A stretch of DNA of 64,000 bases, taken from assembly GCF_004214895.1 (NCBI RefSeq), contig NZ_CP035952.1, positions 1,932,501 through 1,996,500 on the forward strand, read 5' to 3'. A program made the translations under genes and the position numbers. The stretch is from Pseudomonas tructae (GTDB taxonomy: Bacteria; Pseudomonadota; Gammaproteobacteria; Pseudomonadales; Pseudomonadaceae). A model generated the notes under the pieces. It saw only the letters and a list, made by a program, of their open reading frames with translations. It did not search any database and was not told the origin of the DNA. Below, in pieces: positions 36,383 to 51,656 of the stretch. The first letter of the stretch is position 1. Each line of letters opens with the position of its first letter.

Positions 36383-37957
36383 GTGCGTATTTCTACTTCC
36401 CAGTTTTACGAAACCAGTTCCTCGAGTTATCAGCGCAACTTTTCCAATGTGGTCAAGACCGGGCAACAGGCCACCGATAACCTTCGCGTGCGTACCGCTG
36501 CCGATGATCCTGTGGGCGCCGCGCGCCTGCTGCAACTGCAACAGCAGAGCAACCTGCTCGAGCAGTACAACGGCAACATCACCAATGTGCGCAACAGCCT
36601 GGGAACCTCCGAGTCGACCCTGAACGGCATCACCAACGTGTTGGCACGGGCCAAGGAACTGGCTATCAGTGCCGGCAGCGGTGGCTATACCGACGCCGAT
36701 CGCAAGGCTGCCGCCCAGGAGCTGACCCAGCTCGAAGAGCAACTGTACAGCCTGATGAACAGCCGGGACGAGAACGGCAAGTACCTGTTCGCGGGTTCGC
36801 GTGGCGACACCCCGCCGTACGTGCGTAACGCCGATGGTACCTACAGCTACGAGGGCGACCAGAGCACCTTGAGCCTGCAGGTCGGCGACATGCTCAGCAT
36901 GGCTACCAATGAAAGCGGCCACAGCGTGTTCGAGCAAGCCCTCAATACCAGCCGCAGCCAGACCAAGCTGACAGCGCCGCCTGTGGATGATGGCCGAGTA
37001 CATCTGTCCAATGGCCAGGTTTCCGGCAGTACCCAGTACAATGATCGTTTCCGGGGCGGCGAGCCGTACACCGTCACGTTTACCAGCAGCACGCAGTTCA
37101 AGATCACCGATGCGGCCAACAACGATGTGACACTGGAGGCCAGCGGAAACGGTGCCTACGACCCGAACAAGCCGGGCAGCATCACCTTCCGTGGTGTCGA
37201 GATGGCGCTCAATATCAATCTCTCGGATGCCGATAAGCTCAACCCTGACGCGGTGATCGCAGGTCATGCCTTCACTCTGGCCTCAAAGCCCGACGAGGTC
37301 AGCGGCTCGCGTAGCCCGGGCAACACCTCGATGGCACAGCTCAACAGCGCCAAGATCAGCAACCAGACCGACTACGAGAATGCCTTCCCGGGTGGTGGTG
37401 CGATCATCAAGTTCACCAGCCCCAGCGCCTATGAAGTTTATGCCCAGCCCATGAGCGCTGATGCGCGTCCGGTTGCCAGCGGCAACCTGACCGGTACGCC
37501 GGCCACCAAGGCGACCATTGCCGGCGTGGATTTCGACTTCTCGGCGGTGCCGGCTTCAGGTGATCAGTTCTCGGTCAAGGTCGATACCCACCAGACCCAG
37601 AATATCCTCGACACCATCTCGGGGTTCCGCAAGGCGCTGGAGTTGCCGGTCGATAAAGACCTGGCGTCGCGGCAGAAGTACCAGGCCGCCCTGCAGTCGG
37701 TGCTTGGCAACCTGGACAGTGGTGCCAACAAGGTCGCCGAGGCCATCAGCTCGATTGGTGCCCGTGGTGCGGCTCTGGATGTTCAGGCCGAAACCAACGA
37801 AAGCCTGAAGATGGCCAACACCAAGACCCAAAGCTCGATTCGTGACGCCGATCCGGCTGACGTGCTGATTCGCCTCAACCTGCAGCAGACCATGTTGCAG
37901 GCCTCGCAACTGGCCTTTACCAAGATCTCCTCGCTGAGCCTGTTCAACCGCCTCTGA
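36383..37957 (+). CDS. flgL: Hook-filament junction protein FlgL (HAP3)
   Basis: 524 residues starting at a GTG preceded by aaggag. MRISTSQFYETSSSSYQRNF and VRTAADDPVGAARLLQLQQQ open the flagellin-like N-terminus, and DADPADVLIRLNLQQTMLQASQLAFTKISSLSLF closes it. It is longer than enteric FlgL (about 317) because of an inserted middle domain, as is common in Pseudomonas. No terminator follows, so the glycosyltransferase downstream may be co-transcribed. Confidence 0.95.
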   Translation: MRISTSQFYETSSSSYQRNFSNVVKTGQQATDNLRVRTAADDPVGAARLLQLQQQSNLLEQYNGNITNVRNSLGTSESTLNGITNVLARAKELAISAGSGGYTDADRKAAAQELTQLEEQLYSLMNSRDENGKYLFAGSRGDTPPYVRNADGTYSYEGDQSTLSLQVGDMLSMATNESGHSVFEQALNTSRSQTKLTAPPVDDGRVHLSNGQVSGSTQYNDRFRGGEPYTVTFTSSTQFKITDAANNDVTLEASGNGAYDPNKPGSITFRGVEMALNINLSDADKLNPDAVIAGHAFTLASKPDEVSGSRSPGNTSMAQLNSAKISNQTDYENAFPGGGAIIKFTSPSAYEVYAQPMSADARPVASGNLTGTPATKATIAGVDFDFSAVPASGDQFSVKVDTHQTQNILDTISGFRKALELPVDKDLASRQKYQAALQSVLGNLDSGANKVAEAISSIGARGAALDVQAETNESLKMANTKTQSSIRDADPADVLIRLNLQQTMLQASQLAFTKISSLSLFNRL

Positions 37958-38036
37958 CAGGTTCTCACCGCAGTACTGACCGTTGCGGCGCCTCCGTCTG
38001 GTGGCGTTGCAACAGGTCCTCTCCAGGTTTTCCATC

Positions 38037-41000
38037 GTGATCGAACAACCTCTAGTCAGCGTCGCCATTCCCGCCTTCAATGCCCAGTTCCTGGCCCGGA
38101 CCCTGCAAAGTGTCATGCTGCAGCAGTACGACAATCTCGAGATTGTGGTGTGCGATGACAGCCCTGGCGATGAGGTCAAGGTCATTGTCGAGCAACTGGC
38201 AGCGCAGTCGCCGCACACGCTGCGCTATGTGCGCAATCGGGGTACGCTCGGTTTTGCGCGCAACTTGCTGGCGTGTCTGGATAACGCCCGTGGCAGCCTG
38301 ATCAAGTTTCTTTGCGACGACGACTGGTTGCTCGATGGCTGTATCGCCGTACAGGCCTCGACGCTGGTCAAGTGCCCGGATGTGAGTATGGTGATGAGCC
38401 ATCGCCTGTTGTGCGCCAGCGATGACACCTTGCTGCCGTCGCGAACGGCCAACTGCGTCATCTCCAAGGAGAGTGCGGTACTCAATGGCGGCGATCTGTT
38501 GGAGATTGTTTCGGTCGGGGCTATCAATCTGATCGGTGGCATCAGCCATGCGCTGATGCGGCGGGTGCAGGTCGAAGAGTTCCTCGCCCAACTGGTACAG
38601 GATGGTCAAGGTTTCAACGCCCGCCTGGACCTTGCCCTGTATATCTGTTTGTTGCGTCGCGGACACCTGGCCAGCCTCAAAGACATACTCAGCGTCGAGC
38701 GCATACACGCCGGGCAACTCAGCCACCATGCCGGGATGCAACTGGCATTCCCGCTGGAAACCGAGTGGTTGCTGCAGATGTTGGCGTCGCGCGCCAGTGC
38801 AGCGGCGCCGGCGACCGGCTGGGTGCGTTATGTACCGATCGAGCGCTACAGCGAAGGCGCGGACAAAGCCTGGGAGGAGTTCGAGCTGAACCGCCTGTAT
38901 TCCGCCCAGCTTGCCCGTTTTCAGGAGCAGGTCGGCAGTGACAGCCTGAGTTTTTCCGAGCTGTATGCACAGTGGTTGGAGTGCCGGAGCCTGTCGGACG
39001 CGCAGACTCGCTTGCTGCCCAAACGCATCGAGCAATGGCCGCGACGGCCGCATATCGTGGTGGCGATTTTCGATCCCCAGGGTGATGCCCTGGCGTTGGC
39101 GATGACGTTGCAGAGCGTTCAGGCGCAATCCTACCCTGCCAGCCAGGTCTGGGCACTGAGTACCCAGGAGGCAGCAGCGCTTGGCGCTGCGAATGTTCAG
39201 CACCTGCTCTTGCGTGATGAGGGCTTTGGCCAGCTCAACGAACGCCTGGCGGCTGCCGTTCAGGCCGATTGGGTCTACCTGCTGCAGGCCGGTGACCGTC
39301 TGCATCCACATGCCTTGGTGATCATGGCTGAACGCATGGCCTTGCGGCCTGGGGCACGCTGTCTATACACCGATGAGGGCAGCAATGACAACCTGGAGGC
39401 CAGCCAGCCGATCTTCAAGCCGGATTTCAACCTCGACCTGATGCGCAGCTTGCCCTACGTGGGACGCACACTGGCATTCGATTGCGCCAAGACCCTGGCG
39501 CTGGGCGGGTTCTCCCAGGACTTTGGCGTGCTGGCGCCTCAGGATATGCTCTGGCGAATGGTCGAAGCCGAAGGCTTGCACGTGGTCGAGCACGTTGCCG
39601 AGCTGCTGGTGGAGTGCCAGGCCGATCATGGCCAATGGTTGATTGACCCGGCCTGCAGGGTCCAGGCCCCGCGGATTCTGAAGGCGCACCTGCAGCGCCT
39701 GGGCGTGGCTGCAGAGGTAGCCAGCGCCGAAGGTACCTCGTTGTCGCGGGTGCTGTATCAGCATGGGCAGTTGCCGGCGGTGTCGATCATTATCGACGCG
39801 GGTGACGATCTGTCCGTACTCAGACGCTGCGTTGAGTCGATTTTCGAGCACACAGCCTACGCCAACTACGAGGTACTGGTAGTTGCCTCTGGCAACGAAC
39901 CGGCGCCGATGCTGGACTGGTTCAACGCCATGCGTGGCTTGGGCAGCGAACAGTTGCGCATCCTCGATGTCGCGGTGCCGGGCGTGCACCCGCGGATCAA
40001 CCAGGCCAGCACCCAGGCGCGTGGCGCTTATCTGTTGCTGCTCAATGCCGCTTGCATGATCTTTGACGGGCAGTGGTTGGGCGAGCTGATGAGTCAGGCG
40101 CAGCGTCCGGAAGTTGGCGTGGTAGGGCCCAAGCTGTGCACCAGCAACGGTTCGGTGGTGGGCGCCGGCCTGGTACTGGGCCTGCACGGCCCGGCCGATA
40201 GCCCGTTTGTGGGGCTTGCGGCGGATGCCGGCGGCTACATGCACCGCCTCAATAGCGTGCAGAACTGGAGTGCGGTCAGTGGTGACTGCCTGCTGGTGCG
40301 CGGCGACATCTTTGCCGAACTTGAAGGTCTGGCCGCAGACCTGTACTTGAATGACTGGCTTGACGCCGACTTTTGCTTGCGGGTTCGCGACCTTGGTTAT
40401 CTGGTGGTGTGGACCCCCTATGCGCTGGTCGCCCGGTTGGCATCGGCAGGGCGTACGCCAGCTGTATCAGGTCAGGTGCAGGATCGCGATGCGTTCTACC
40501 AGCGCTGGCTATCCCGGGTTGCCTATGATCCGGCCTACAACCGCAACCTGCACCTGACACTGTCCAGTTTCACCCTCGACCCGGGGCTGCGCAGTGGCTG
40601 GGATCCGTTCATCAGTCGCACCTTGCCCTATGTGCTGGGCTTGCCGATCAATACGACGGCGATCGGTCACTACCGGGTAGCGCAGCCATTGTCGGAGCTG
40701 GAGCGTGCCGGCTGGATCCAGGGCCGGGTCAGCTACGCGACCCCGGGCGTCATCGAGCTTGAGCGAGACAAGCCGGACGTGATCATTCTCCAGTGCCGCT
40801 ACATGAGCAGTTCGCTCGACGAATTTGCGCGTATCAAGCGCTTTTCCAATGCCCGGCGGATCTACGAGATCGATGACTACATCCTCGGCTTGCCGGAGAA
40901 AAACGACCACGGCCGCAATATGCCGGGCAACATGCGCGAAATGGTTTCCCGTGGCGTTGCCATGTGCGACCGTCTGGTGGTATCGACCCAGCCACTGGCG

Positions 41001-41609
41001 GATGCCCTGTCGAGCATGCACCAGGACATCCGTGTGGTGCCGAACATGCTGGCGTCGCAATTGTGGCTGGGCCTGACCAGTCGCCGCCAGACCTCGTCCA
41101 GGCCGCGTGTCGGCTGGGCTGGTGGCACCAGTCATCGGGGCGATCTGGAGTTGATCGCCGATGTGGTCAAGGAACTGGCCAACGAGGTTGACTGGGTGTT
41201 CTTTGGCATGTGCCCGGACGTCCTGCGTCCGTACATCAAGGAGTTTCACAGCGGTGTCGGCCTGCATGCTTATCCGCAAAAGCTGGCCAGCCTGGACCTG
41301 GACCTGGCGCTGGCGCCTCTTGAGGTCAACCTGTTCAACGATTGCAAGAGCAACCTGCGCCTGCTTGAGTATGGGGCCTGCGGGTTCCCGGTGATTTGTA
41401 CTGACACCAAGGCTTATCAGGGCTACTTGCCCTGCACGCGCGTGCGAAGCAATACCGCACAGGAGTGGCTGGAGGCAATCCGCATGCACCTGGCTGACCC
41501 GCAGGCCAGCTACCGGCAGGGCGATGCGCTGCGCGAGGCGGTGCTGCGAGACTACGTACTGACCGAGAACAATTTGCAGCAATGGGCCAACGGTTGGTTG
41601 GCCCATTGA
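38037..41609 (+). CDS. Giant multidomain glycosyltransferase 1 of the flagellin island
   Basis: 1190 residues from a GTG at 38037, the last start before the first GT2 strand; the start is uncertain. Order: an N-terminal GT2 domain with an intact acidic motif (CDDDW, residues 93-97); a second GT2-like module (about 335-560) whose motif is QAGD (about 417); a third (about 579-860) reading LLNAAC (about 667) where active GT2 enzymes have NPDT; and a C-terminal GT-B-like half (about 910-1185) with EYGACGFPVICTD. The place between flgL and fliC matches the fgt genes that glycosylate flagellin in P. syringae. Cytoplasmic transfer of sugars to FliC is inferred. Confidence 0.85.
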   Translation: MIEQPLVSVAIPAFNAQFLARTLQSVMLQQYDNLEIVVCDDSPGDEVKVIVEQLAAQSPHTLRYVRNRGTLGFARNLLACLDNARGSLIKFLCDDDWLLDGCIAVQASTLVKCPDVSMVMSHRLLCASDDTLLPSRTANCVISKESAVLNGGDLLEIVSVGAINLIGGISHALMRRVQVEEFLAQLVQDGQGFNARLDLALYICLLRRGHLASLKDILSVERIHAGQLSHHAGMQLAFPLETEWLLQMLASRASAAAPATGWVRYVPIERYSEGADKAWEEFELNRLYSAQLARFQEQVGSDSLSFSELYAQWLECRSLSDAQTRLLPKRIEQWPRRPHIVVAIFDPQGDALALAMTLQSVQAQSYPASQVWALSTQEAAALGAANVQHLLLRDEGFGQLNERLAAAVQADWVYLLQAGDRLHPHALVIMAERMALRPGARCLYTDEGSNDNLEASQPIFKPDFNLDLMRSLPYVGRTLAFDCAKTLALGGFSQDFGVLAPQDMLWRMVEAEGLHVVEHVAELLVECQADHGQWLIDPACRVQAPRILKAHLQRLGVAAEVASAEGTSLSRVLYQHGQLPAVSIIIDAGDDLSVLRRCVESIFEHTAYANYEVLVVASGNEPAPMLDWFNAMRGLGSEQLRILDVAVPGVHPRINQASTQARGAYLLLLNAACMIFDGQWLGELMSQAQRPEVGVVGPKLCTSNGSVVGAGLVLGLHGPADSPFVGLAADAGGYMHRLNSVQNWSAVSGDCLLVRGDIFAELEGLAADLYLNDWLDADFCLRVRDLGYLVVWTPYALVARLASAGRTPAVSGQVQDRDAFYQRWLSRVAYDPAYNRNLHLTLSSFTLDPGLRSGWDPFISRTLPYVLGLPINTTAIGHYRVAQPLSELERAGWIQGRVSYATPGVIELERDKPDVIILQCRYMSSSLDEFARIKRFSNARRIYEIDDYILGLPEKNDHGRNMPGNMREMVSRGVAMCDRLVVSTQPLADALSSMHQDIRVVPNMLASQLWLGLTSRRQTSSRPRVGWAGGTSHRGDLELIADVVKELANEVDWVFFGMCPDVLRPYIKEFHSGVGLHAYPQKLASLDLDLALAPLEVNLFNDCKSNLRLLEYGACGFPVICTDTKAYQGYLPCTRVRSNTAQEWLEAIRMHLADPQASYRQGDALREAVLRDYVLTENNLQQWANGWLAH

Positions 41610-41669
41610 TCGAGCGGGCCGGCTTGCTGGCCTTGTTTGCAACAGAACTACGAGAGCATCAGGTGCGCT

Positions 41670-44474
41670 ATGGGTGAAAAAGCATTGGAGTCGGCAGCAT
41701 TTCTGGACGATGTAACCGTCGTTTTGCTGGGACAGAACGATCCTGGTTACAGCGGTCGCGCCGCCCACTACTATCGGGCACGTTTCCATCATCAGGTGAC
41801 GGTGACCGTACCTTGCCAGCAAGCATCGAGCGCGCTCTGGAAGGCGCAGCTACTTGCCGCGCTGGACCAGGTCGAAACGCCCTTTGTGGTGCTTGCACTG
41901 GACAGCGATTTCCTCCTGGCCGATGCCTTGAGTGCTCAAGCCCAGGCCCTGCGGGCGGAGCCCGAATACCTGATGGCCCAGGGTTATTCGCTGGGCTATT
42001 GCCCTGGCAACAGCGAGGTGGCCTATTACAAGTTTGGGGCAGCCCTGGGCGCCAACGCCATCGCCGAAACCGCTCGTGAGCGTATTGCGCTGCATGGCGA
42101 ACACGCATTGCAGGCCTGGCGGGCGCTGGTGCGGGTCGAGGGCTTGAAGGCGGTGCTGGCTGATGCGCCGTTGGGCCTGGCGTTCGAGGGCTGGTGCGTG
42201 GCGCTGTCCTATGGGCTGCTGGCACAAGGTGCGGTCAAGGTATTGGCGCAAGCCAGTCTCATCAGCGAGTACCGCCCGTCATTGTCGGTGCAGGGGGCTG
42301 CGCAAGAGCAACTCAATCAGGCCGTTCGCCTGATTCGCCAATGGGATGAGCAGCGTGGCCGGGTATGTGCCGACGCCCAGGGTTTCGAGGTGCTCAACGC
42401 GTTCGTGCGCAATAGCCATGAAGGGCGTGAGGCGCCGTTGCTCTTCACCTCGCGCTGGAGCAGCGTGGTGATCGAGCCTGAGCGCAGTTTCGAGCCACGC
42501 CAGTTTGTCGAAATGCCGTACTACAACGCGGTGTTGTTCGGGCAATTACGGGCGTTGGAGTTTCTGCTGCATGCCTGGCCAGCCGGGCAGGTGCACAAGA
42601 ATGCGCTGGAAGGTAGCTGGGTGCGCCAGCAGGCGTTGCTGGTGGTCCAGCCCAACGATACTCAGGAAAGCCTCAAGGCGCGCTACTTGCAGGCGTTCGG
42701 CCTGGGGTTGTTCAATCCGCAGGTTTGCCAGCGCTTGCTCACTACCCTGGACAGCAAGGACGATCAGACCCTGATCCAGGTGCTCAGCCTGTGGCTCAAG
42801 CAGCTCGAAGAGTTGCCGGGTTCGAATGTGCAGCCGTTGCTGGCCGCTACGCCGTCGGGCAAGGTGCTGGCGGCCATTGCTGCCGCGACGCCAGACAGCG
42901 CTGGGCGCAAACGGATCCTGACTCACCTGGGCAAAAACCGGTCGCCGCAACTGGCTTTCCTGGTGATCGACCTGGATGACAGCGACATTGCCTTGCAGGA
43001 TACCTTCGACAGCTTGCTGGCCAGCGGCCTGCGCGACTTCAAGATCGTGGTGTTCAAGGCTGGCCAGTTGCCGGCGGTGACCACGGCCAAAGACACCCTG
43101 CATTTCATCAAGGTGAACCCCGGTAACCTGGTCGCGCATATCAATCAGGTGGTGCGGCAGTTGGCCTGCGACTGGTTGATGCTGCTGCAGGCTGGCGATG
43201 TGCTTGCTGAAGGTGGGTTGTTGCGCCTGCAAGTCGAGTTGGCCGGTGCCGATGCCTGCCATGCTATCTGCGCCAATGAAGTACAGCGTGACCAGGACGG
43301 GCGCCTGCTCAGTATTGTCCGCCCTGGTTGCAACCTGGATTTGTTGCGTAGCCGCCCGGACCTGATGTCGCGGCACTGGCTGGTGCGCCGCGACCGAGTA
43401 GTCGCGTTGGGTGGCTACAGCGAACATTGCGCGCAGGCGCTGGAGTTCGATCTGTTGCTCAGGTTGGTGGAAGAGCAGGGTGTTGCAGGCCTGGCCCATC
43501 TGGATGAGTACCTGGTGATCGGCCAGTACGACCGCGAGACGATGGCCGATGCTGCGCTGGTGACCCTCAAGCGCCATCTTGGTGTGCTCGGCTACAACAG
43601 TCAGGTGAGCGAAAGCGCTGACGGTGCTTTCCAGATCGACTACCGTCATTCGCAGTCGCCGCTGGTCAGCATCCTGTTGCCGAGCGGTGATGACCTTGCT
43701 CAGCTCCAGGCTTGCCTGGCGAGTATTGTTCAGCGCACCCGCTACCCGCGCTATGAAGTGATAGTGGTCAGCTCTGGCGCTGCGGCCGAATCGACTGCCG
43801 CTGGCCTGGGCAATCTGCAGTTGGGTGGCCGGGTGAAACTCCTCACCAGTGCGCAACCGCTTGAGCATGTGCAAATGTTCAACGAGGCGGCGGCCCAGGC
43901 CCAGGGTGAATACCTGGTGCTGCTCTCCAGCCGCAGCCAGGTGTTTTCTCCGTCCTGGATCGAAGCCTTGCTCAACCAGGCCCTGCGTCCGGAAGTCGGT
44001 GTGGTGGGCGGTCAGATGCACGATGAGGCGGGGTTGATTACCCATGCCGGTTACGAGTTGCTCGATACCCAACAGGTGCGCAGTGCGTGGCTGGGTGCCT
44101 CGCGCGACGCCGTCGGGTCGATGCTGGGGTTGGCCCAAGTACGTAGCGTTGCCGCGGTCAGCGAAGACTGCCTGATGGTGCGCAAGGAATTGCTTGAGCA
44201 CTGTGCCGGACTGCAAGTGATTGCCGGCACCGATATCGACCTTTGCCTGAAGGCGGCCGAAGCGGGCCTGATGGTAATCTGCACGCCTTTGGCGCAATTG
44301 CTCAACGCGGGTGTGCCATTGCTTGATCAGGCGCAGCAGCAGGCCCTGGCCGCACGCTGGCCATTGGCATTCAACGTTCGGGCGCGGGTGGATGAGCGCC
44401 ATGGCGTGGATGTTTCCCGAGTGGTTGCGCCAGGCGAGGCGGTCGAGCTGCAGTGGTTGGCCGACTTGCAGTAA
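41670..44474 (+). CDS. Giant glycosyltransferase-like protein 2 of the flagellin island
   Basis: 934 residues from the ATG at 41670 (aggtg upstream). The N-terminal domain (about 8-400) begins VTVVLLGQNDPGYSG and resembles a GT-A start, with LALDSDFLL as a possible metal site. A tandem of two GT2-like modules follows, paralogous to those in the neighbours: about 424-650 with LLQAGD, and about 663-925 with LLSSRS in place of the NPDT motif. Both appear to lack catalytic acids. There is no C-terminal GT-B domain. It lies 60 bases after glycosyltransferase 1 and ends at a terminator shared with the convergent paralogue. Confidence 0.82.
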   Translation: MGEKALESAAFLDDVTVVLLGQNDPGYSGRAAHYYRARFHHQVTVTVPCQQASSALWKAQLLAALDQVETPFVVLALDSDFLLADALSAQAQALRAEPEYLMAQGYSLGYCPGNSEVAYYKFGAALGANAIAETARERIALHGEHALQAWRALVRVEGLKAVLADAPLGLAFEGWCVALSYGLLAQGAVKVLAQASLISEYRPSLSVQGAAQEQLNQAVRLIRQWDEQRGRVCADAQGFEVLNAFVRNSHEGREAPLLFTSRWSSVVIEPERSFEPRQFVEMPYYNAVLFGQLRALEFLLHAWPAGQVHKNALEGSWVRQQALLVVQPNDTQESLKARYLQAFGLGLFNPQVCQRLLTTLDSKDDQTLIQVLSLWLKQLEELPGSNVQPLLAATPSGKVLAAIAAATPDSAGRKRILTHLGKNRSPQLAFLVIDLDDSDIALQDTFDSLLASGLRDFKIVVFKAGQLPAVTTAKDTLHFIKVNPGNLVAHINQVVRQLACDWLMLLQAGDVLAEGGLLRLQVELAGADACHAICANEVQRDQDGRLLSIVRPGCNLDLLRSRPDLMSRHWLVRRDRVVALGGYSEHCAQALEFDLLLRLVEEQGVAGLAHLDEYLVIGQYDRETMADAALVTLKRHLGVLGYNSQVSESADGAFQIDYRHSQSPLVSILLPSGDDLAQLQACLASIVQRTRYPRYEVIVVSSGAAAESTAAGLGNLQLGGRVKLLTSAQPLEHVQMFNEAAAQAQGEYLVLLSSRSQVFSPSWIEALLNQALRPEVGVVGGQMHDEAGLITHAGYELLDTQQVRSAWLGASRDAVGSMLGLAQVRSVAAVSEDCLMVRKELLEHCAGLQVIAGTDIDLCLKAAEAGLMVICTPLAQLLNAGVPLLDQAQQQALAARWPLAFNVRARVDERHGVDVSRVVAPGEAVELQWLADLQ

Positions 44475-44486
44475 TACCTCAAGCAC

Positions 44487-44520
44487 ATGAAAAAGCCGGG
44501 TTCTCACCCGGCTTTTTCAT
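44487..44520. terminator. Bidirectional terminator between the glycosyltransferase genes
   Basis: ATGAAAAAGCCGGG (44487-44500) pairs perfectly with CCCGGCTTTTTCAT (44507-44520) around ttctca, with A-run and T-run on either side for both strands. Confidence 0.92.
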
Positions 44521-44535
44521 GGCTGCTGCATCGGC

Positions 44536-47500
44536 TTAGTCAGGCATCCAGGCCGCTCGCCAGGTTTGCAGGTGTGCGTCGTCGAGCAGGCCTTGCTCGA
44601 TCACCTGTTGACGCAGTTCGGCGCCTTTCTGGCGGGTTGCCTGTAGCTGCTCCAGGTGCTCGGTGAGTGCCTGCGACCAGGCTTGCAGGTCGTTGCTGAC
44701 CCGCGTGACCCGATAGGGGCCATGCAAGGCCTGGACATCACTGCAGATGACTGCGTAGCCGCAGGCTCCCACCTGCAGCAGCGGCAAGGCGCTGCTGCAG
44801 CGATCGAAGGTACTGTCTCCCAGCACCACCAGGGCGATGTCCAGGTTCAGGCTCGCCAGGACTGCCGGCTTGTCTTGCAGTGGGCCGTCGTGGACCTCCT
44901 TGGCCAGAGGGCGCAAATGCATAGGCACCTCGCCCCACAGCACCCAGTCGACCTGGTCGGCCAGTTGCCGGACCAAACCGTCGAGGAGTAATCCGCTGCT
45001 GTGTTGACGGCTGTCGAAGGCGCAGCCGACGCGCGGCTTGCCAGGCAGGCGTTGCGGCTGGGGCAGGTTCAGCCATTGCTCGCCAAGGCGGCTCTCGACT
45101 ACGCGAATATCCGCGTGCACGCCCTCCAGGGCTTCGGCCAGGGCCTGGGTCGGGACGATGATCCGGTCGACATGCCGGGCAGCCTGGTGCAGTGCATCCC
45201 AACCACGTTGCTGATCGCAAGCCAGTGGCCCCTCGAGGGCTGGCAGGAAACAGTCCACCTCAAGGATCTTGAAGGCTTTGCTCAACTGCTCGACGCGGTG
45301 CATTTGCTCCAGGCGCTGCAGATCGGTGTGGCGCTGGAACACAATGACGTCCGGTTTCAGGCGCTCAAGGGCAACCGGGTTCAAGACACTGCCGCTCAGG
45401 CAACCATCGACGAAGCCGCAGTTGCGCAGTTGTTCAAACGGTTGTACCAGACGCTCCGGCGCCGGATTTGCCCCTTGCGCCGGGTGGCCCAGCACGACTG
45501 GAAGCGGACGCCAGGACAGGGGCTTCCAGCTCAGGCCATGATTGCCTTCAAGTTCGAAGCCATTGCCACGCAGCGACAGGTTCTTGTTATAGGCCGGGTC
45601 GTTGGCCAGCACCGTCAGCCATTTGTCATAGGCGTTCTGTTGATCGAGGTAGTAGCGCTGTTTGTTGTGTGGTTGCTTCCTGGCTTGCGTCCAGCTCGCT
45701 CCACCTTCATGCAACAGCACTGCATGCGCCGTCCAGACGTTCAGATAGCCCAGGTTGGCTACCTTCAAGCACAGATCCAGATCATTGCAGGTGATCTGGA
45801 AGGCGGTCTCGTCCATGCCACCGGCTTCGATGTAAAGCGCCGTGCGAATCATCATGCAGGCCGAACTGACCGCGCTGAGGTTCTGGTCGACCAGCAAGCG
45901 CTGCAGGTAACCACCGGTATTGGCGGGCTGATCGAGGAAGGGGCTGCCGGCTGGACCGCGCAGGCCGCTGATCAGGCCTGCGTGCTGGAGTTTGCCATCG
46001 GCGCCGAGCAATTTGCCACCCACTACGCCGACTTCGGGGCGCAAGGCATGGTTGAGCAACTGCTCCAGCCAGTCTTCGCGAATGGCCACGGTGTCAGGGT
46101 TGAGTAGCAGCAGATATTCGCCGCGCGCCTGGCTGGCCGCCAGGTTGTTGATGGCACTGGGGTTGTAGGCGTGGGGGTAGCGCAACACGCGCAGCTTGTC
46201 GCCGCCCACCGAGGCCATTTCGTCGAGCCAGGCCAGGGTTTCGGGTTGCTGGCTGTCGTTGTCGACCAGAATCACTTCGAAGTGCGGATAGCGCGTGCAC
46301 GACAGCAGGCTTTCAACGCAGCGTTGCAGCAGCGGCAGTTGGTCGTGGGTGGCAATCAGGATCGACACCAGCGGTTGCTGTGAGTGGCCATACTGGAGGT
46401 GGTAATGGCGAGGGGGCTCCTCAACAACCCGGGCATCGGCATAGCCACGATTGAACAGGTGGCGCAGCAGCGCCTGGCGCTCGTCAGGGTTGTCGTCCAG
46501 GGTCGGGCTGTTGCTGATCACCAGGGGTTCGTCGAGGTGGGCAATGCCATTCATGCCGCCGTTTTCGATCAGCCGCAGGATCAGGTCCAGCTCAAGTGCC
46601 CGGGGCAACTGGGGGGTGTAACCGCCGACCTGCAGGGCCAGTTCGCGGCGTATCAGCCAATGACTGGCCATGGCCAATGGCAGGCTCAACAGGTAATCGA
46701 GGTTGGCGCAGGGGCGCAGCACCGCACCGGCTCCGTCCGCCGAGCGGAACATGCCGTCGCAGTACAGCATCCGGCAGCCCTCGGCGCCGGGCAGTTCGAG
46801 GTCGAGCATCACGGTGCCGGCCGGCAGCATTTCATCGCCGGCGCTGAGCAGCATGAACCAGTCGCTGTCGCTGGCCTTGAGGGCCTCGTTCAGCGCCATG
46901 GTGTCTGGTTCGGCACAGTACAGCCATTGCAGGTTGCCTGGCAGTTGAGCCGGGCCGGGGCGTGTGCTGAGGACCACGGTATCGATGGCGATCGAAGAGC
47001 TCGACTGCCAGAGCTCCAGGCTTTCCAGGGTGTCGGCAAGCGCTCGGAGGTCGCCCAGGGGATCGCGTACCAGCACGGTCAGGCTGGTATGACCGCGCAA
47101 TTGCTGGCGACGCTGATCCACCAGGTGCTGCTGGATCGGGGTCAGCATGCGGTTGAGCAGCCATTCCCTGATGCTCGGTACGTGGCTGTCGGTCAGATGT
47201 TGGCACGCCGCCTGCTGGGTCAGCTCGACAAAGTGCTGCAGTTGTGGCCAGAAGTGCGTCTCGACATCCAGCAGGCGCTGGCGTGCCAGCATCACCGAGG
47301 CGCGTGCGCGTTCCAGGCCGCCGGGCTCTTCGTACATGGCGGCACCGGCATTGCCGATGTGCTCGGTAAATGGCAATTCATGCACACGCCCGCCACGCAG
47401 GTAGATCACCGGGCAGCCGCACAGCAGGGCCTCGCTGCAAGTCGCCGAGATCTCATAGCTGTACAGGGTTTCGGCGGTCTGGAAGATTTCCGCCAGTTGC

Positions 47501-48072
47501 GTCAGGGTTTTCGGGTTGCGCAGGCTCAGGATTTCGATGTCATCGGGCAACAGCGAGTAATCCACCTGACTGGCATCGAAGCGGTGCAGGTACAAATAGT
47601 TGCCCTTGCGCTGCACCGGGGTTGGCAGGGGGGCAAACAGGTTGGTATCGATGACCGGCAGGGTCAGCATGTTGGCCAATGACTTGCCGTCGCGAAAATC
47701 ATGGGCGAAGTAAAAGAACAGGTCGCCCGGTTCGCTGTCCAGGTACTTGCCGGAAATGTACGCATCGCTGTTGAGCATGTAGCGGGCTACCACCGGGCAG
47801 TCCAGCGGGTTGCCACTGAGAATCTCAGGGTAAACGGCGACAGGGGCCACGCCGATTGCCTGGTGATGGCGGCGGATCTCTTCCGTCAGTTCCGGGGTGC
47901 GCAGCCGCGGATTTCGCACCTTGCAACCAAACACGTAGGCTTCCTGGCCTGACAGGTTCAGGGCGTGGCAGAGGTAGTGCAGCGTACAGATGCCGGAAGA
48001 GGTTTCGCGGTAGTCGGGTGCATAGATGTAGTACGGGTTGCTGGGTTTTCCATGCAGGGATGGAGCGCTCAT
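44536..48072 (-). CDS. Giant multidomain glycosyltransferase 3 of the flagellin island
   Basis: 1178 residues from the ATG at 48072 (aaggga upstream); a longer frame to 48201 would overlap the preceding gene and is rejected. Order: a GT-B-like N-terminal domain (about 10-310) with CSEALLCGCPVIYLRGG; a GT2-like module (about 330-550) with LLSAGD; a second GT2 module (about 565-840) with an intact LLNPDT motif and the D-x-C NDLDLCLK segment; and a degenerate GT-B-like C-terminus (about 900-1170) with QVGACGYAVICSD. It follows the aminotransferase by 64 bases on the same strand and opposes the other two transferases. Confidence 0.85.
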   Translation of the reverse strand: MSAPSLHGKPSNPYYIYAPDYRETSSGICTLHYLCHALNLSGQEAYVFGCKVRNPRLRTPELTEEIRRHHQAIGVAPVAVYPEILSGNPLDCPVVARYMLNSDAYISGKYLDSEPGDLFFYFAHDFRDGKSLANMLTLPVIDTNLFAPLPTPVQRKGNYLYLHRFDASQVDYSLLPDDIEILSLRNPKTLTQLAEIFQTAETLYSYEISATCSEALLCGCPVIYLRGGRVHELPFTEHIGNAGAAMYEEPGGLERARASVMLARQRLLDVETHFWPQLQHFVELTQQAACQHLTDSHVPSIREWLLNRMLTPIQQHLVDQRRQQLRGHTSLTVLVRDPLGDLRALADTLESLELWQSSSSIAIDTVVLSTRPGPAQLPGNLQWLYCAEPDTMALNEALKASDSDWFMLLSAGDEMLPAGTVMLDLELPGAEGCRMLYCDGMFRSADGAGAVLRPCANLDYLLSLPLAMASHWLIRRELALQVGGYTPQLPRALELDLILRLIENGGMNGIAHLDEPLVISNSPTLDDNPDERQALLRHLFNRGYADARVVEEPPRHYHLQYGHSQQPLVSILIATHDQLPLLQRCVESLLSCTRYPHFEVILVDNDSQQPETLAWLDEMASVGGDKLRVLRYPHAYNPSAINNLAASQARGEYLLLLNPDTVAIREDWLEQLLNHALRPEVGVVGGKLLGADGKLQHAGLISGLRGPAGSPFLDQPANTGGYLQRLLVDQNLSAVSSACMMIRTALYIEAGGMDETAFQITCNDLDLCLKVANLGYLNVWTAHAVLLHEGGASWTQARKQPHNKQRYYLDQQNAYDKWLTVLANDPAYNKNLSLRGNGFELEGNHGLSWKPLSWRPLPVVLGHPAQGANPAPERLVQPFEQLRNCGFVDGCLSGSVLNPVALERLKPDVIVFQRHTDLQRLEQMHRVEQLSKAFKILEVDCFLPALEGPLACDQQRGWDALHQAARHVDRIIVPTQALAEALEGVHADIRVVESRLGEQWLNLPQPQRLPGKPRVGCAFDSRQHSSGLLLDGLVRQLADQVDWVLWGEVPMHLRPLAKEVHDGPLQDKPAVLASLNLDIALVVLGDSTFDRCSSALPLLQVGACGYAVICSDVQALHGPYRVTRVSNDLQAWSQALTEHLEQLQATRQKGAELRQQVIEQGLLDDAHLQTWRAAWMPD

Positions 48073-48136
48073 ACGGTTCCCTTGGGCAACGAGGTTATGG
48101 CCGATGGTGAGTGCGCGATACGGGCTCGCGCATCCT

Positions 48137-49264
48137 TTATTGGTTCGGTGTCGCCCGGGCTGACAGCAGCACATCGATGATGCGCGTCTGGGTCTGGTCA
48201 TCCAGCTCCGGGTGGATAGGCAGGCACAGCACCTGGCGGGAAATCTTCAGGGCTTGCTCCAGCTTGCCGGTGTCGGCGCTGGGCAGGTTGCGGTACATGG
48301 GGAACTCGCAGATCAACGGGTAGAAGTACCGGCGTACGAGGATGTCTTCGGCGCGGTAACGCTCGTAGAGGGCATCGCGACTGGTGCCGAATCGCTCGCC
48401 ATCAACCAGGATCGGGCAATAGGCGTAGTTCCATTGCAGGCCATCGGGTGCCTGCAACAGGCTGATGCCATCCACGCCCTCAAGTGCGCTGCGGTAGCGT
48501 TGGTAAACCTGGCGGCGACGCTCAATGGCATCGTCGATATGGCGCAGTTGCAACACCCCGAAGGCCGCTTGCAGCTCGTTCATCTTGCCATTGATGCCGG
48601 GCGCCATGACCGTGACTTCATCTGCAAAGCCGAAGTTCTTCAAGTAGTCGATGCGGCGCTTGAGCTTCTCGTCCTGACAGATGATCGCCCCGCCTTCGAT
48701 GGTGTTGAACACCTTGGTGGCGTGGAAGCTGAGGATCGAAAGGTCGCCATGGTTGAGGATGCTGGCGCCGTTCTGGCGTACGCCGAAGGCATGGGCGGCA
48801 TCGTAGATGACCTTCAGGCCATACGTGTCGGCAACCTGCTGGATGCCTTCGACATCGCAGGGTATGCCGTAGCAGTGCACCGGCAGGATCGCGGTGGTCG
48901 CGGGCGTGATGGCCTCGATGATGCGTTGCGGGTCGAGGTTGTTGGTGCGCGGGTCGATGTCGACGAACACTGGCTTGAGGTTGTTCCACAGCAGCGAGTG
49001 GGCGGTGGCCACGAATGAATAGGGTGTGGTGATGACTTCACCGGTAATGCGCAGGGCTTGCAGCGCGGTCACCAGCGCCAGGGTGCCGTTGCTGAACAGC
49101 GAAATGTGCTTGACCCCCAGGTATTCGGCCAGTTCCTTTTCCAACTGCTGGTGGTATGGGCCACAGTTGGTCAGGAATTTACTGTCCCAGATGTTCTCCA
49201 GGTAGGGGATGAATTCTTCCAGAGGCGGTAGCAGCGGGCTGGTTACAGTAATGGGTTTGGCCAT
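48137..49264 (-). CDS. DegT/DnrJ/EryC1-family sugar aminotransferase, VioA-like
   Basis: 375 residues, PLP-dependent. The PLP lysine is K184 in SFHATKVFNTIEGGA, and D155 in IYDAAHAFG binds the PLP nitrogen. SNGTLALVTALQALRI is the phosphate-binding start. Such enzymes aminate NDP-keto-deoxysugars; VioA makes dTDP-4-amino-4,6-dideoxyglucose (viosamine), a sugar known on P. syringae flagellin. The assignment to VioA rather than another 4-aminotransferase rests on resemblance and place only. No dTDP-sugar synthesis or acyltransferase gene is visible nearby. First of a two-gene unit with glycosyltransferase 3. Confidence 0.88.
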   Translation of the reverse strand: MAKPITVTSPLLPPLEEFIPYLENIWDSKFLTNCGPYHQQLEKELAEYLGVKHISLFSNGTLALVTALQALRITGEVITTPYSFVATAHSLLWNNLKPVFVDIDPRTNNLDPQRIIEAITPATTAILPVHCYGIPCDVEGIQQVADTYGLKVIYDAAHAFGVRQNGASILNHGDLSILSFHATKVFNTIEGGAIICQDEKLKRRIDYLKNFGFADEVTVMAPGINGKMNELQAAFGVLQLRHIDDAIERRRQVYQRYRSALEGVDGISLLQAPDGLQWNYAYCPILVDGERFGTSRDALYERYRAEDILVRRYFYPLICEFPMYRNLPSADTGKLEQALKISRQVLCLPIHPELDDQTQTRIIDVLLSARATPNQ

Positions 49265-49624: not shown

Positions 49625-50554
49625 ATGATTGGCATCAAAAGCATTGCGAGTTACGTACCAGTCGAGGGGGTGGACAACTACGCCCAGGGTGCGAAGTTCG
49701 CCAAGGACCAAGATTTCATTCTCGGCAAGATCGGCTCGACCTTCCTGCCGCGCAAGGAAGCAGGCCAGGAAACCTCCGACCTGTGCGTGGAGGCGGTCAA
49801 GTCCCTGTTCGCTGCCAATCCGAGCTTGTTGCCTGAATCCATCGATGCCCTGATCGTCGTCACCCAGAACGGCGACGAAGAAGGTTTGCCGCATACCGCT
49901 GCCATCGTTCAGGACAAGCTGGGTTTGCCGACCCATGTTGCGGCATTCGATATTTCCCTGGGGTGCTCGGGTTACGTTTATGGCCTGTATGCCATGAAGG
50001 GCTTCATGGAGGCGGCGGGCTTGAAGAACGGCCTGCTGATCACTGCTGACCCGTACTCGAAGATCGTCGATCCGCAAGACCGCAACACCACCATGCTCTT
50101 CGGCGATGCGGCGACCGTGACCTGGATGGGTGAGGGCGCTCAATGGCAGTTGGGCAAGGCCAAGTTCGGCACCGACGGTGGTGGTGCCGCGCACTTGAAG
50201 GTCAGTGATGGCGTGTTCTTCATGAATGGCCGCCAGGTGTTCAACTTCGCCTTGCTCAAGGTGCCGGCGCATTTGCATGAGTTGCTGGGCGAAAGCCAGT
50301 TGACGCCGTCGGACATTGACCTGTTCTGCATTCACCAGGGCAGTGCGGCCATTGTCGATGCGGTGGCCCGGCGCTTCGAGGATGACCCGGACAAGTTCGT
50401 CAAGGACATGGTCGAGACCGGTAATACGGTGTCGTCGAGCATTCCGCTGCTGCTGGAGAAGCACGTGCTGGGTTCGCAACACCAGCGCATTGCCCTGAGC
50501 GGTTTCGGTGTGGGCCTGTCGTGGGGCTCGGCGATTATCGAGCGCAAGGATTGA
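49625..50554 (+). CDS. KAS III-like (FabH-type) enzyme of the flagellin island
   Basis: 309 residues of thiolase fold with a complete Cys-His-Asn triad: C114 (SLGCSGYVYG), H237 (CIHQGS) and N267 (TGNTVSSSIP). IHQGS replaces the usual PHQAN of housekeeping FabH, so this is a specialised member. A KAS III homologue (orf3) lies between the fgt genes and fliC in P. syringae too, where the flagellin sugar carries a short acyl group. Making that acyl chain is the likely role here, by inference. gggaag precedes the ATG. Confidence 0.88.
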   Translation: MIGIKSIASYVPVEGVDNYAQGAKFAKDQDFILGKIGSTFLPRKEAGQETSDLCVEAVKSLFAANPSLLPESIDALIVVTQNGDEEGLPHTAAIVQDKLGLPTHVAAFDISLGCSGYVYGLYAMKGFMEAAGLKNGLLITADPYSKIVDPQDRNTTMLFGDAATVTWMGEGAQWQLGKAKFGTDGGGAAHLKVSDGVFFMNGRQVFNFALLKVPAHLHELLGESQLTPSDIDLFCIHQGSAAIVDAVARRFEDDPDKFVKDMVETGNTVSSSIPLLLEKHVLGSQHQRIALSGFGVGLSWGSAIIERKD

Positions 50555-50807: not shown

Positions 50808-51656
50808 ATGGCATTAACCGTTAACACCAACACTACCTCCCTGGGCGTTCAGAAGAACCTGAACCGCGCTTCCGACGCTCTGAGCACTTCGATGAGCCGT
50901 CTGTCCTCCGGCCTGAAAATCAACAGCGCCAAAGACGACGCCGCCGGCCTGCAGATCGCTACCCGTATGACCTCGCAAATCCGCGGTCAGACCATGGCAA
51001 TCAAAAACGCCAACGACGGTGTTTCGATCGCTCAGACCGCTGAAGGCGCGATGCAAGAGCAGACCAACATTCTGCAGCGTATGCGCGAACTGGCCCTGCA
51101 GTCGCGAAACGACTCCAACGACTCTACCAACCGTACCTCGCTGGATAAAGAGTTCAAGCAGATGGCTGCTGAACTGACCCGTATCGCTCAGTCCACCCAG
51201 CTGAACGGCAAGAACCTGCTGGACGGTTCGGCTAGCGTCATGACCTTCCAGGTCGGTTCCGAAACCGGTAAGCAAAACCAGATCGACATGGACCTGAGCG
51301 CCAAGTTCCTGGCCAGCGACCTGGGTATCACCGCAGCAATCACCATTGCCGGTAGCGACAGCGCCACTGCTGAAACCAACTTTGCCTCCGCAATGGCTGC
51401 AATCGCTTCTGCACTGGACACCATCGGCACCAAGCGCGCCGACCTGGGTGCTGTGCAAAACCGTATGACCAGCACCATCAACAACCTGCAAAACATCAAC
51501 GAAAACGCCGAAGCTGCTCGTGGTCGCGTACAAGATACCGACTTCGCTGCTGAAACCGCTCAGATGACCAAGCAACAGACTCTGCAGCAAGCTTCGACTT
51601 CGGTACTGGCCCAGGCTAACCAACTGCCTTCCGCCGTACTGAAACTGCTGGGCTAA
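50808..51656 (+). CDS. fliC: Flagellin FliC, short type
   Basis: 282 residues, the filament subunit. The conserved D0/D1 ends are present (MALTVNTNTTSLGVQKNLN; C-terminal STSVLAQANQLPSAVLKLLG). The middle D2/D3 part is reduced to about 60 residues, as in P. syringae-type flagellin and unlike the long P. putida KT2440 form. The flg22 region reads SRLSSGLKINSAKDDAAGLQ. A flgII-28-like stretch (TNILQRMRELALQSRNDSN) follows. The Ser/Thr-rich centre offers O-glycosylation sites for the adjacent island. Confidence 0.97.
   Translation: MALTVNTNTTSLGVQKNLNRASDALSTSMSRLSSGLKINSAKDDAAGLQIATRMTSQIRGQTMAIKNANDGVSIAQTAEGAMQEQTNILQRMRELALQSRNDSNDSTNRTSLDKEFKQMAAELTRIAQSTQLNGKNLLDGSASVMTFQVGSETGKQNQIDMDLSAKFLASDLGITAAITIAGSDSATAETNFASAMAAIASALDTIGTKRADLGAVQNRMTSTINNLQNINENAEAARGRVQDTDFAAETAQMTKQQTLQQASTSVLAQANQLPSAVLKLLG

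What the first reader, a model, noticed from the sequence alone, without database searches (positions are those of the whole stretch)
37983..48201. Three paralogous giant glycosyltransferases with shuffled end domains
The proteins at 38037, 41670 and 44536 share a tandem pair of GT2-like modules: all have an AGD motif in the first module and RPEVGVVG in the second, and 1 and 3 also share DPAYN(R/K)NL after the second. Their ends differ. Protein 1 has a GT2 N-terminus and a GT-B-like C-terminus; protein 2 has a different N-terminus and stops after the tandem; protein 3 has GT-B-like domains at both ends. This looks like duplication followed by domain exchange, giving a set of polymodular enzymes at the flagellin locus. 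The paralogy is seen in the sequence; the joint role in building one glycan is inference.
Basis: partly seen in the sequence, partly recalled or inferred. Interest (0 to 1): 0.8.

Follow-up and report, generated by a model that had tools for sequence, protein, structure and literature searches.

The report
Modular flagellin glycosyltransferases with swapped ends
Beside a Pseudomonas flagellin gene sit three related giant sugar-attaching enzymes built on one shared two-module core with different enzyme modules at their ends; relatives of all three are common in the genus and two belong to a known family, but the way their ends have been exchanged and their active sites lost one by one is worth testing.

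Summary
Confirmed: the three proteins are paralogues sharing a tandem pair of GT-A modules (cross-module profile scores 64-271 bits; at most 30 bits against eight other GT2 loci of the genome). Proteins 1 and 3 share a C-terminal GT-B; protein 2 stops after the tandem; the three N-terminal caps are unrelated in sequence. Protein 1 is Fgt1-type and protein 2 Fgt2-type, known from P. syringae; protein 3 resembles VioT in size and neighbours, unproven. These are old families, not a recent local duplication. Among 568 relatives, Fgt1 (199/199) and Fgt2 (181/181) types have fixed architectures while the protein-3 family carries several caps; cap and core trees conflict (AU p 3e-6), so ends were exchanged. 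New here: active-site motifs are lost module by module. Fgt1 keeps its N-terminal GT2 and C-terminal GT-B motifs but lost those of core module 2; protein 3 keeps module 2 and lost the C-terminal one. Most likely the core is mainly a scaffold and the caps, plus module 2 of protein 3, build a short rhamnose-based glycan on FliC. Catalysis is inferred, not shown.

The parts
38037..41609 (+). protein 1, Fgt1-type, 1190 aa: GT2 cap, core module 1, core module 2, C-terminal GT-B
38043..38972 (+). protein 1 N-terminal GT2 cap; the Asp residues of CDDS and CDDD are kept in 147-148 of 148 rows
39042..39758 (+). protein 1 core module 1 (GT-A by homology; AGD; not matched by Pfam)
39768..40478 (+). protein 1 core module 2 (GT2; DxD and nucleotide-binding Asp lost; RPEVGVVG kept)
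40695..41606 (+). protein 1 C-terminal GT-B (GT4-like by homology to protein 3); Glu of NLRLLEYG in 148/148 rows
41670..44474 (+). protein 2, Fgt2-type, 934 aa: GT-A-like cap, helical segment, core modules 1 and 2, no C-terminal GT-B
41694..42401 (+). protein 2 N-terminal cap, GT-A-like; second Asp of DSD kept in 145/147 rows although the domain is the least conserved of the protein
42942..43640 (+). protein 2 core module 1
43650..44351 (+). protein 2 core module 2 (DxD lost in this protein)
44536..48072 (-). protein 3, 1178 aa: GT-B-like cap, core modules 1 and 2, C-terminal GT-B
47167..48054 (-). protein 3 N-terminal GT-B-like cap (no Pfam or NCBIfam match)
46387..47094 (-). protein 3 core module 1
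45664..46380 (-). protein 3 core module 2 (GT2; VDND and LNPDT kept)
44539..45459 (-). protein 3 C-terminal GT-B; Glu replaced by Gln (ALPLLQVG)
48137..49264 (-). DegT/DnrJ sugar aminotransferase, same strand as and directly before protein 3; best NCBIfam match DesI (dTDP-4-dehydro-6-deoxyglucose aminotransferase), below its cut-off
49625..50554 (+). 3-oxoacyl-ACP synthase III-like gene between the glycosyltransferases and fliC
50808..51656 (+). fliC flagellin, 282 aa, the presumed acceptor
36383..37957 (+). flgL, syntenic anchor upstream of fgt1

Best explanation
The locus is a Pseudomonas flagellin glycosylation island with Fgt1-type (protein 1), Fgt2-type (protein 2) and a third, VioT-like (protein 3) enzyme. 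All three share a tandem GT-A core that probably acts mainly as a folding or acceptor-docking scaffold, with catalytic modules placed at the ends: an N-terminal GT2 and C-terminal GT-B in protein 1, an N-terminal GT-A in protein 2, and an N-terminal GT-B plus a still intact second core module in protein 3. Working model: in the cytoplasm protein 1 puts the first rhamnose on FliC serines (inverting GT2 cap), protein 2 extends it, and protein 3 adds an amino-sugar made through the neighbouring DegT aminotransferase, before export. Shown here: paralogy, architectures, end exchange, motif loss. Published for P. syringae: Fgt1 and Fgt2 are needed for full flagellin glycosylation. Inferred: which module does which step, the scaffold role, protein 3's sugar, and the order before export.
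For: Paralogy. Architecture across 568 relatives: Fgt1-type GT2 cap + C domain 199/199, Fgt2-type cap without C 181/181, protein-3 family GT-B cap 153, GT2 cap 16, long N 14, other 5. End exchange: the GT-B cap label needs 11 changes on the core tree, at least 7 forced by starred branches; five proteins whose caps form one clade (100/99) are rejected as one clade on the core (AU p 3.06e-6). Motifs: Fgt1 cap D58, D113, D114 148/148 and C-domain Glu 148/148, module-2 DxD not kept; on the best core tree the module-2 DxD state needs at least 14 changes, the C-domain Glu 4 or 5. Constraint follows motifs: within the 22 proteins of protein 3's motif class mean identity is N 0.738, m2 0.715, m1 0.676, C 0.520, whereas in Fgt1 the C domain is the most conserved module (0.739) and m2 the least (0.520). 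Fgt1 next to flgL in 80/80 named loci. Literature passages: Fgt1 transfers rhamnose to serine (PMC3927599); fgt1 mutant non-glycosylated, fgt2 mutant partially (PMC12915359). FliC has Ser at 4 of the 6 positions glycosylated in P. syringae (143, 164, 183, 201; Ala at 176 and 193), taking the same numbering. The genome has rmlD over its cut-off (the other three rml genes were not searched). The linkages of the reported P. syringae glycan (table passage) need inversion of the usual donors, which fits GT2 enzymes (family mechanism recalled).
Against: No activity is tested. Loss of DxD does not prove loss of function; some GT-A enzymes work without it (recalled). Module 1 of Fgt1 has invariant residues (G437, D438, D464, E465, D521 in 148/148) and module 1 is the most conserved module of Fgt2 (0.610), which a pure scaffold does not require. 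4 of 20 Fgt2-type representatives show an Asp at the third DxD position of module 2. In the protein-3 set the Glu taken as the N-cap catalytic residue is kept in only 45 of 150 rows (12 of the 150 do not carry this cap at my threshold), and 47 of 150 rows lack all three scored motifs, 6 of them with a gap at the C-domain column, so either the marker is wrong or the cap works without it. Of the viosamine genes only a DegT and a KASIII gene were identified near protein 3.
Confidence: 0.7

Rival explanations
1. All modules are active and each giant protein is a multi-step enzyme adding several sugars, like the tandem chondroitin or heparosan synthases; motif changes only tune donor use.
For: The best Foldseek matches of the models are the two-site polymerases K4CP and heparosan synthase 2; several module-1 residues of Fgt1 are invariant.
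Against: Module 2 of Fgt1 and of most Fgt2 rows lacks DxD and the nucleotide-binding Asp, with free variation at those columns; module 1 is not matched by Pfam in any of the three; the module-2 DxD state needs at least 14 changes on the core tree.
Confidence: 0.15
2. Protein 3 does not act on flagellin but on another surface glycan, and sits here by chance insertion with its aminotransferase.
For: Protein 3 and DegT are on the opposite strand, convergent with fgt1-fgt2 and parted from them by a terminator-like hairpin; protein-3-family genes also lie far from fgt1 in other genomes, e.g. over 180 kb away in G036, beside a recombinase gene; within the 10-kb flanks it was found in 26 of 80 named fgt1 loci.
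Against: Where present it lies between fgt2 and the KASIII and fliC genes in several species, e.g. L100-L103, L109, L113; VioT, of the same size class, acts on flagellin, and its homologue OrfN belongs to the PAK flagellin glycosylation island (PMC3927599 passages).
Confidence: 0.2
3. The shared core is only the general resemblance of GT2 superfamily members and not true paralogy.
For: GT2 modules are common; the genome has 14 PF00535 places.
Against: Cross-family module scores (64-271 bits) exceed those of the other GT2s examined (up to 30), module order and linker are shared, and P1/P3 align in one stretch of 896 columns.
Confidence: 0.01

Closest known systems
Fgt1 of Pseudomonas syringae pv. 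tabaci 6605 (flagellin glycosyltransferase)
   Same: Gene in the flagellar cluster upstream of fliC; an orthologue of about 1,200 aa directly after flgL in a named P. syringae strain (L132, 53% identity over residues 5-1190).
   Different: The Pta 6605 sequence itself was not held; no module-level assignment appeared in the passages read.
Fgt2 of P. syringae
   Same: Upstream of fliC; an orthologue lies in L132 (1009-aa ORF) and the type has the same architecture (cap, tandem core, no C-terminal GT-B).
   Different: In L132 5.4 kb separate the two genes; here protein 2 follows fgt1 directly.
VioT of P. syringae (mVio transferase, 1,173 aa) and OrfN of P. aeruginosa PAK
   Same: Length class; a neighbouring DegT aminotransferase (VioA in P. 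syringae) and a KASIII gene.
   Different: VioT lies in a separate viosamine island with vioB, vioR, vioM and acp (PMC3927599 passages); here protein 3 is at the flagellin locus and those genes were not identified beside it. Direct sequence comparison was not possible.
PA1091 (FgtA) of P. aeruginosa PAO1
   Same: Large multifunctional flagellin glycosyltransferase with a GT2 part.
   Different: Described as GT2 plus phosphotransferase activity in one protein (PMC11833859 passages); Pfam showed no phosphotransferase domain here.
K4 chondroitin polymerase / heparosan synthase 2
   Same: Two GT-A domains in tandem; best Foldseek matches.
   Different: Those have two working sites (recalled); here one or both core sites lack the motifs.

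Membership tests
Fgt1-type flagellin glycosyltransferase | position directly downstream of flgL in the flagellar cluster | tested here: met
Fgt1-type flagellin glycosyltransferase | core clade with fixed architecture GT2 cap + tandem + GT-B | tested here: met
   one clade at 99* with P0001 inside; 199/199 architecture
Fgt1-type flagellin glycosyltransferase | deletion gives non-glycosylated flagellin | not testable with these tools
   reported for P. syringae (PMC3402453, PMC12915359 passages)
Fgt2-type flagellin glycosyltransferase | core clade, own N-cap, no C-terminal GT-B | tested here: met
   one clade at 100* with P0002 inside; 181/181
Fgt2-type flagellin glycosyltransferase | deletion gives partially glycosylated flagellin | not testable with these tools
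   reported for P. syringae
VioT (modified viosamine transferase) | sequence orthology to VioT | not tested
   VioT sequence not held; size 1,178 against 1,173 aa only
VioT (modified viosamine transferase) | linked viosamine pathway (vioA, vioS, vioB, vioR, vioM, acp) | tested here: inconclusive
   DegT (DesI-like, 303.5 bits, cut-off 650) and KASIII identified; the other four not among the 13 ORFs of 29.5-51.7 kb that were scanned; ORFs under 230 aa there were not scanned, which would miss an ACP; the rest of the genome was not searched for them
tandem two-site GT-A polymerase (K4CP type) | DxD in both tandem modules | tested here: not met
   module 1 is xAGD in all three; module 2 DxD absent in proteins 1 and 2, present in protein 3
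GT4-like GT-B (C-terminal domain) | GT-B fold with the conserved nucleotide-sugar-binding Glu | tested here: inconclusive

The most novel reading that the evidence does not exclude
A plug-in design for protein glycosylation: one flagellin-dedicated, largely non-catalytic tandem GT-A core onto which catalytic caps of unrelated origin have been swapped repeatedly, with active sites lost module by module, so that each strain's flagellin glycan is set by which caps are live. In Fgt1 the most conserved module is the C-terminal GT4-like domain (Glu 199/199), a family expected to be retaining (recalled), although the linkages of the reported P. syringae trisaccharide need inversion: this predicts a step or a role not yet described. 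One candidate, alpha-D-rhamnose from GDP-D-rhamnose (D- and L-rhamnose are named in a 2007 title seen only in reference lists), is disfavoured in this genome, where the best Gmd match is 75.4 bits against a cut-off of 415.
Probability: 0.35. Interest if true: 0.65.

Novelty: new member of a known kind. Interest (0 to 1): 0.42.

Why it matters
Flagellin glycans affect swarming, surface behaviour and virulence of plant-associated Pseudomonas, yet the modules of the giant transferases were not assigned to steps in the passages read. The motif and constraint map names a few residues whose mutation would tell which modules work, and the cap/core conflict shows a protein-glycosylation system that diversifies by exchanging enzyme ends on a constant core.

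Tried and rejected
GT-B caps and loss of the C-terminal Glu: by count the Glu is lost in 21 of 45 GT-B-capped representatives and 0 of 56 others (Fisher p 1.5e-9), but this rests on 4-5 changes on the tree and the four independent pairs do not differ in cap, so no link is claimed; one GT2-capped protein of the full set also has Gln. Domain claims for the N-caps by sequence library: Pfam and NCBIfam gave nothing for the protein 3 cap, the PDB profile search only non-significant hits, the first a GT4 enzyme (E 0.3). L179 was looked at as a possible viosamine island and its four neighbouring ORFs do not support that. GDP-D-rhamnose supply: Gmd not over its cut-off. Literature: searches listed no title or abstract start assigning modules of Fgt1/Fgt2/VioT or describing their end exchange; this covers only the open-licence library, and I read passages of five papers, none in full. 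Rows dropped: L066 (Fgt1 set), L082 and L093 (Fgt2 set), where the longest ORF was taken to be an antisense shadow; P0050, P0074 and P0119 were left out of the core tree for the AU test as long branches. The five-row group for the AU test was picked from cap motifs and the cap tree after I had also seen the core tree. Limits of the sets: the protein searches listed the best 120 of 209, 139 and 591 hits for proteins 3, 2 and 1, and take only candidates of 0.55-1.75 times the query length, so fixed architectures are partly a matter of sampling; the large core tree was a quick one with SH-aLRT support only.
Full report
Observation. The three ORFs are large and conserved. Protein 1 (38037-41609, 1190 aa) and protein 2 (41670-44474, 934 aa) follow flgL on the + strand; protein 3 (44536-48072, 1178 aa) lies convergent on the - strand after a DegT aminotransferase gene (48137-49264), and a KASIII-like gene and fliC follow. 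The lengths match database forms P0244 and P0124 and the close relative P0004. BLASTP confirms paralogy: P1/P3 36% in one alignment of 896 columns, P1/P2 32% over 487, P2/P3 37% over 424.

More than chance. Profiles of core modules 1 and 2 built from relatives score 64-271 bits against the matching modules of the other two proteins and at most 30 bits against the other GT2 loci examined (8 of the 10 non-window places of PF00535). The Fgt1 N-cap, an ordinary GT2 domain, scores up to 66 bits there, so that cap is not special to the family. hhalign gives 99.9-100% for module 1 against module 1, 100% for module 2 against module 2 and 100% for the two C-terminal domains; the three N-caps give 0.0-0.1% against each other. 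The two core modules are distant relatives of one another (5.6-98.1% depending on the pair).

Identity. In a sample of 119 Pseudomonas genomes (this one included) 87, 87 and 88 have a match at E 1e-20 to proteins 1, 2 and 3 (cross-hits between paralogues counted); by my reading of the lists 65 hold a full-length Fgt1 type and 17 a protein-3 type with the same cap. In 80 named loci (the best 80 of 589 Fgt1 matches), flgL stands directly before Fgt1 in 80, Fgt2 lies in the held flank in 71 (within 400 bases of Fgt1 in 33), and the protein-3 family in 26, of which 11 have a DegT hit within 1.5 kb; flanks of 10 kb make these numbers lower bounds. Named loci include P. syringae GR12-2 (L132). Passages read in PMC3927599, PMC3402453 and PMC12915359 report that fgt1 and fgt2 lie upstream of fliC, that Fgt1 transfers rhamnose to serine, and that their loss gives bare or partially glycosylated flagellin. 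Protein 3 resembles VioT (1,173 aa) in size and company only.

End exchange. Among 568 proteins with both core modules (copies of one protein from different sources not removed; drawn by similarity to the three), the Fgt1 type has a GT2 cap and C-domain in 199/199, the Fgt2 type its own cap and no C-domain in 181/181, while the protein-3 family has GT-B (153), GT2 (16), long (14) or other (5) N-termini (caps called at 100 bits or more). On a core tree of 123 representatives Fgt1 and Fgt2 are single clades; the GT-B cap label needs 11 changes, at least 7 forced by starred branches. Five proteins whose GT-B caps form one clade (100/99) lie apart on the core tree, and holding them together is rejected (AU p 3.06e-6, 5 against 53 rows). 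So caps have moved between cores.

Active sites. In 148 Fgt1 rows the Asp residues of the cap's CDDS and CDDD and the C-domain's VGWAGGTSHRGD and NLRLLEYG are nearly invariant, while in module 2 the DxD and nucleotide-binding Asp columns vary freely. In 147 Fgt2 rows the second Asp of the cap's DSD is kept in 145 and module 2 is again degenerate, though 4 of 20 Fgt2 representatives show an Asp at the third DxD position. In 150 protein-3-set rows (12 of them with another N-terminus) the states are mixed: N-cap Glu kept in 45, module-2 DxD in 65, C-domain Glu in 64; protein 3 itself has N-cap Glu and module-2 DxD and lacks the C-domain Glu; 47 of 150 have none of the three, 6 of these with a gap at the C column. 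On the best core tree module-2 DxD needs at least 14 changes and the C-domain Glu 4-5. Conservation follows: in Fgt1 the C-domain is the most conserved module (0.739) and module 2 the least (0.520); in the 22 proteins of protein 3's motif class the C-domain is least conserved (0.520) and the N-cap and module 2 most (0.738, 0.715). Results that do not fit a simple scaffold: module 1 is the most conserved module of Fgt2 (0.610) and has invariant acidic residues in Fgt1.

How it most likely works. The acceptor FliC has Ser at four of the six positions glycosylated in P. syringae (assuming the same numbering), the genome carries rmlD over its cut-off for the last step to dTDP-L-rhamnose, and the DegT gene's best model is a dTDP-4-dehydro-6-deoxyglucose aminotransferase, below cut-off. 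I infer: Fgt1's GT2 cap adds the first rhamnose, Fgt2's cap extends, protein 3 adds an amino-sugar by its module 2 or N-cap; the core holds caps and acceptor together. The published P. syringae glycan (table passage) has linkages that need inversion, which suits GT2 enzymes and leaves the very conserved GT4-like domain of Fgt1 without an evident job; supply of GDP-D-rhamnose, one candidate donor, is not supported in this genome.

Verdict. The module-by-module loss of active-site motifs and the unexplained conserved GT-B are the parts worth experimental work.

Noticed in passing
44490-44517: A perfect hairpin flanked by A and T runs lies between the stops of the convergent proteins 2 and 3; it looks like a bidirectional intrinsic terminator (read directly from the sequence; no terminator scan run).
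   Followed up: no
L190:4804-10986, L188:5545-11199, L189:6084-11738, L196:5440-10608, L195:3762-8666: Other Pseudomonas genomes have 1,635-2,061-aa open frames in which the same tandem core and C-terminal GT-B follow long extra N-terminal parts.
   Followed up: partly
47167-48054: The protein 3 cap (APDYRETSSG...LHYLCHALN...CGCPVI) is a conserved domain of about 300 aa without a Pfam or NCBIfam match; a profile of it finds only this one place in the genome at E 0.01.
   Followed up: partly
G034:C1:2638197-2641384 and G080:C1:2671620-2674842: In two other genomes the Fgt1-type match falls into separate pieces (residues 21-744 and 741-1076 in G034; 19-400 and 679-1100 in G080, the latter with a stop inside), so the gene may be broken there.
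   Followed up: no
49625-50554: A KASIII-like gene stands directly before fliC; a homologue was found in 13 of the 80 named loci within the held flank. Its role in the glycan is unclear, as no N-acyltransferase was identified beside it.
   Followed up: no
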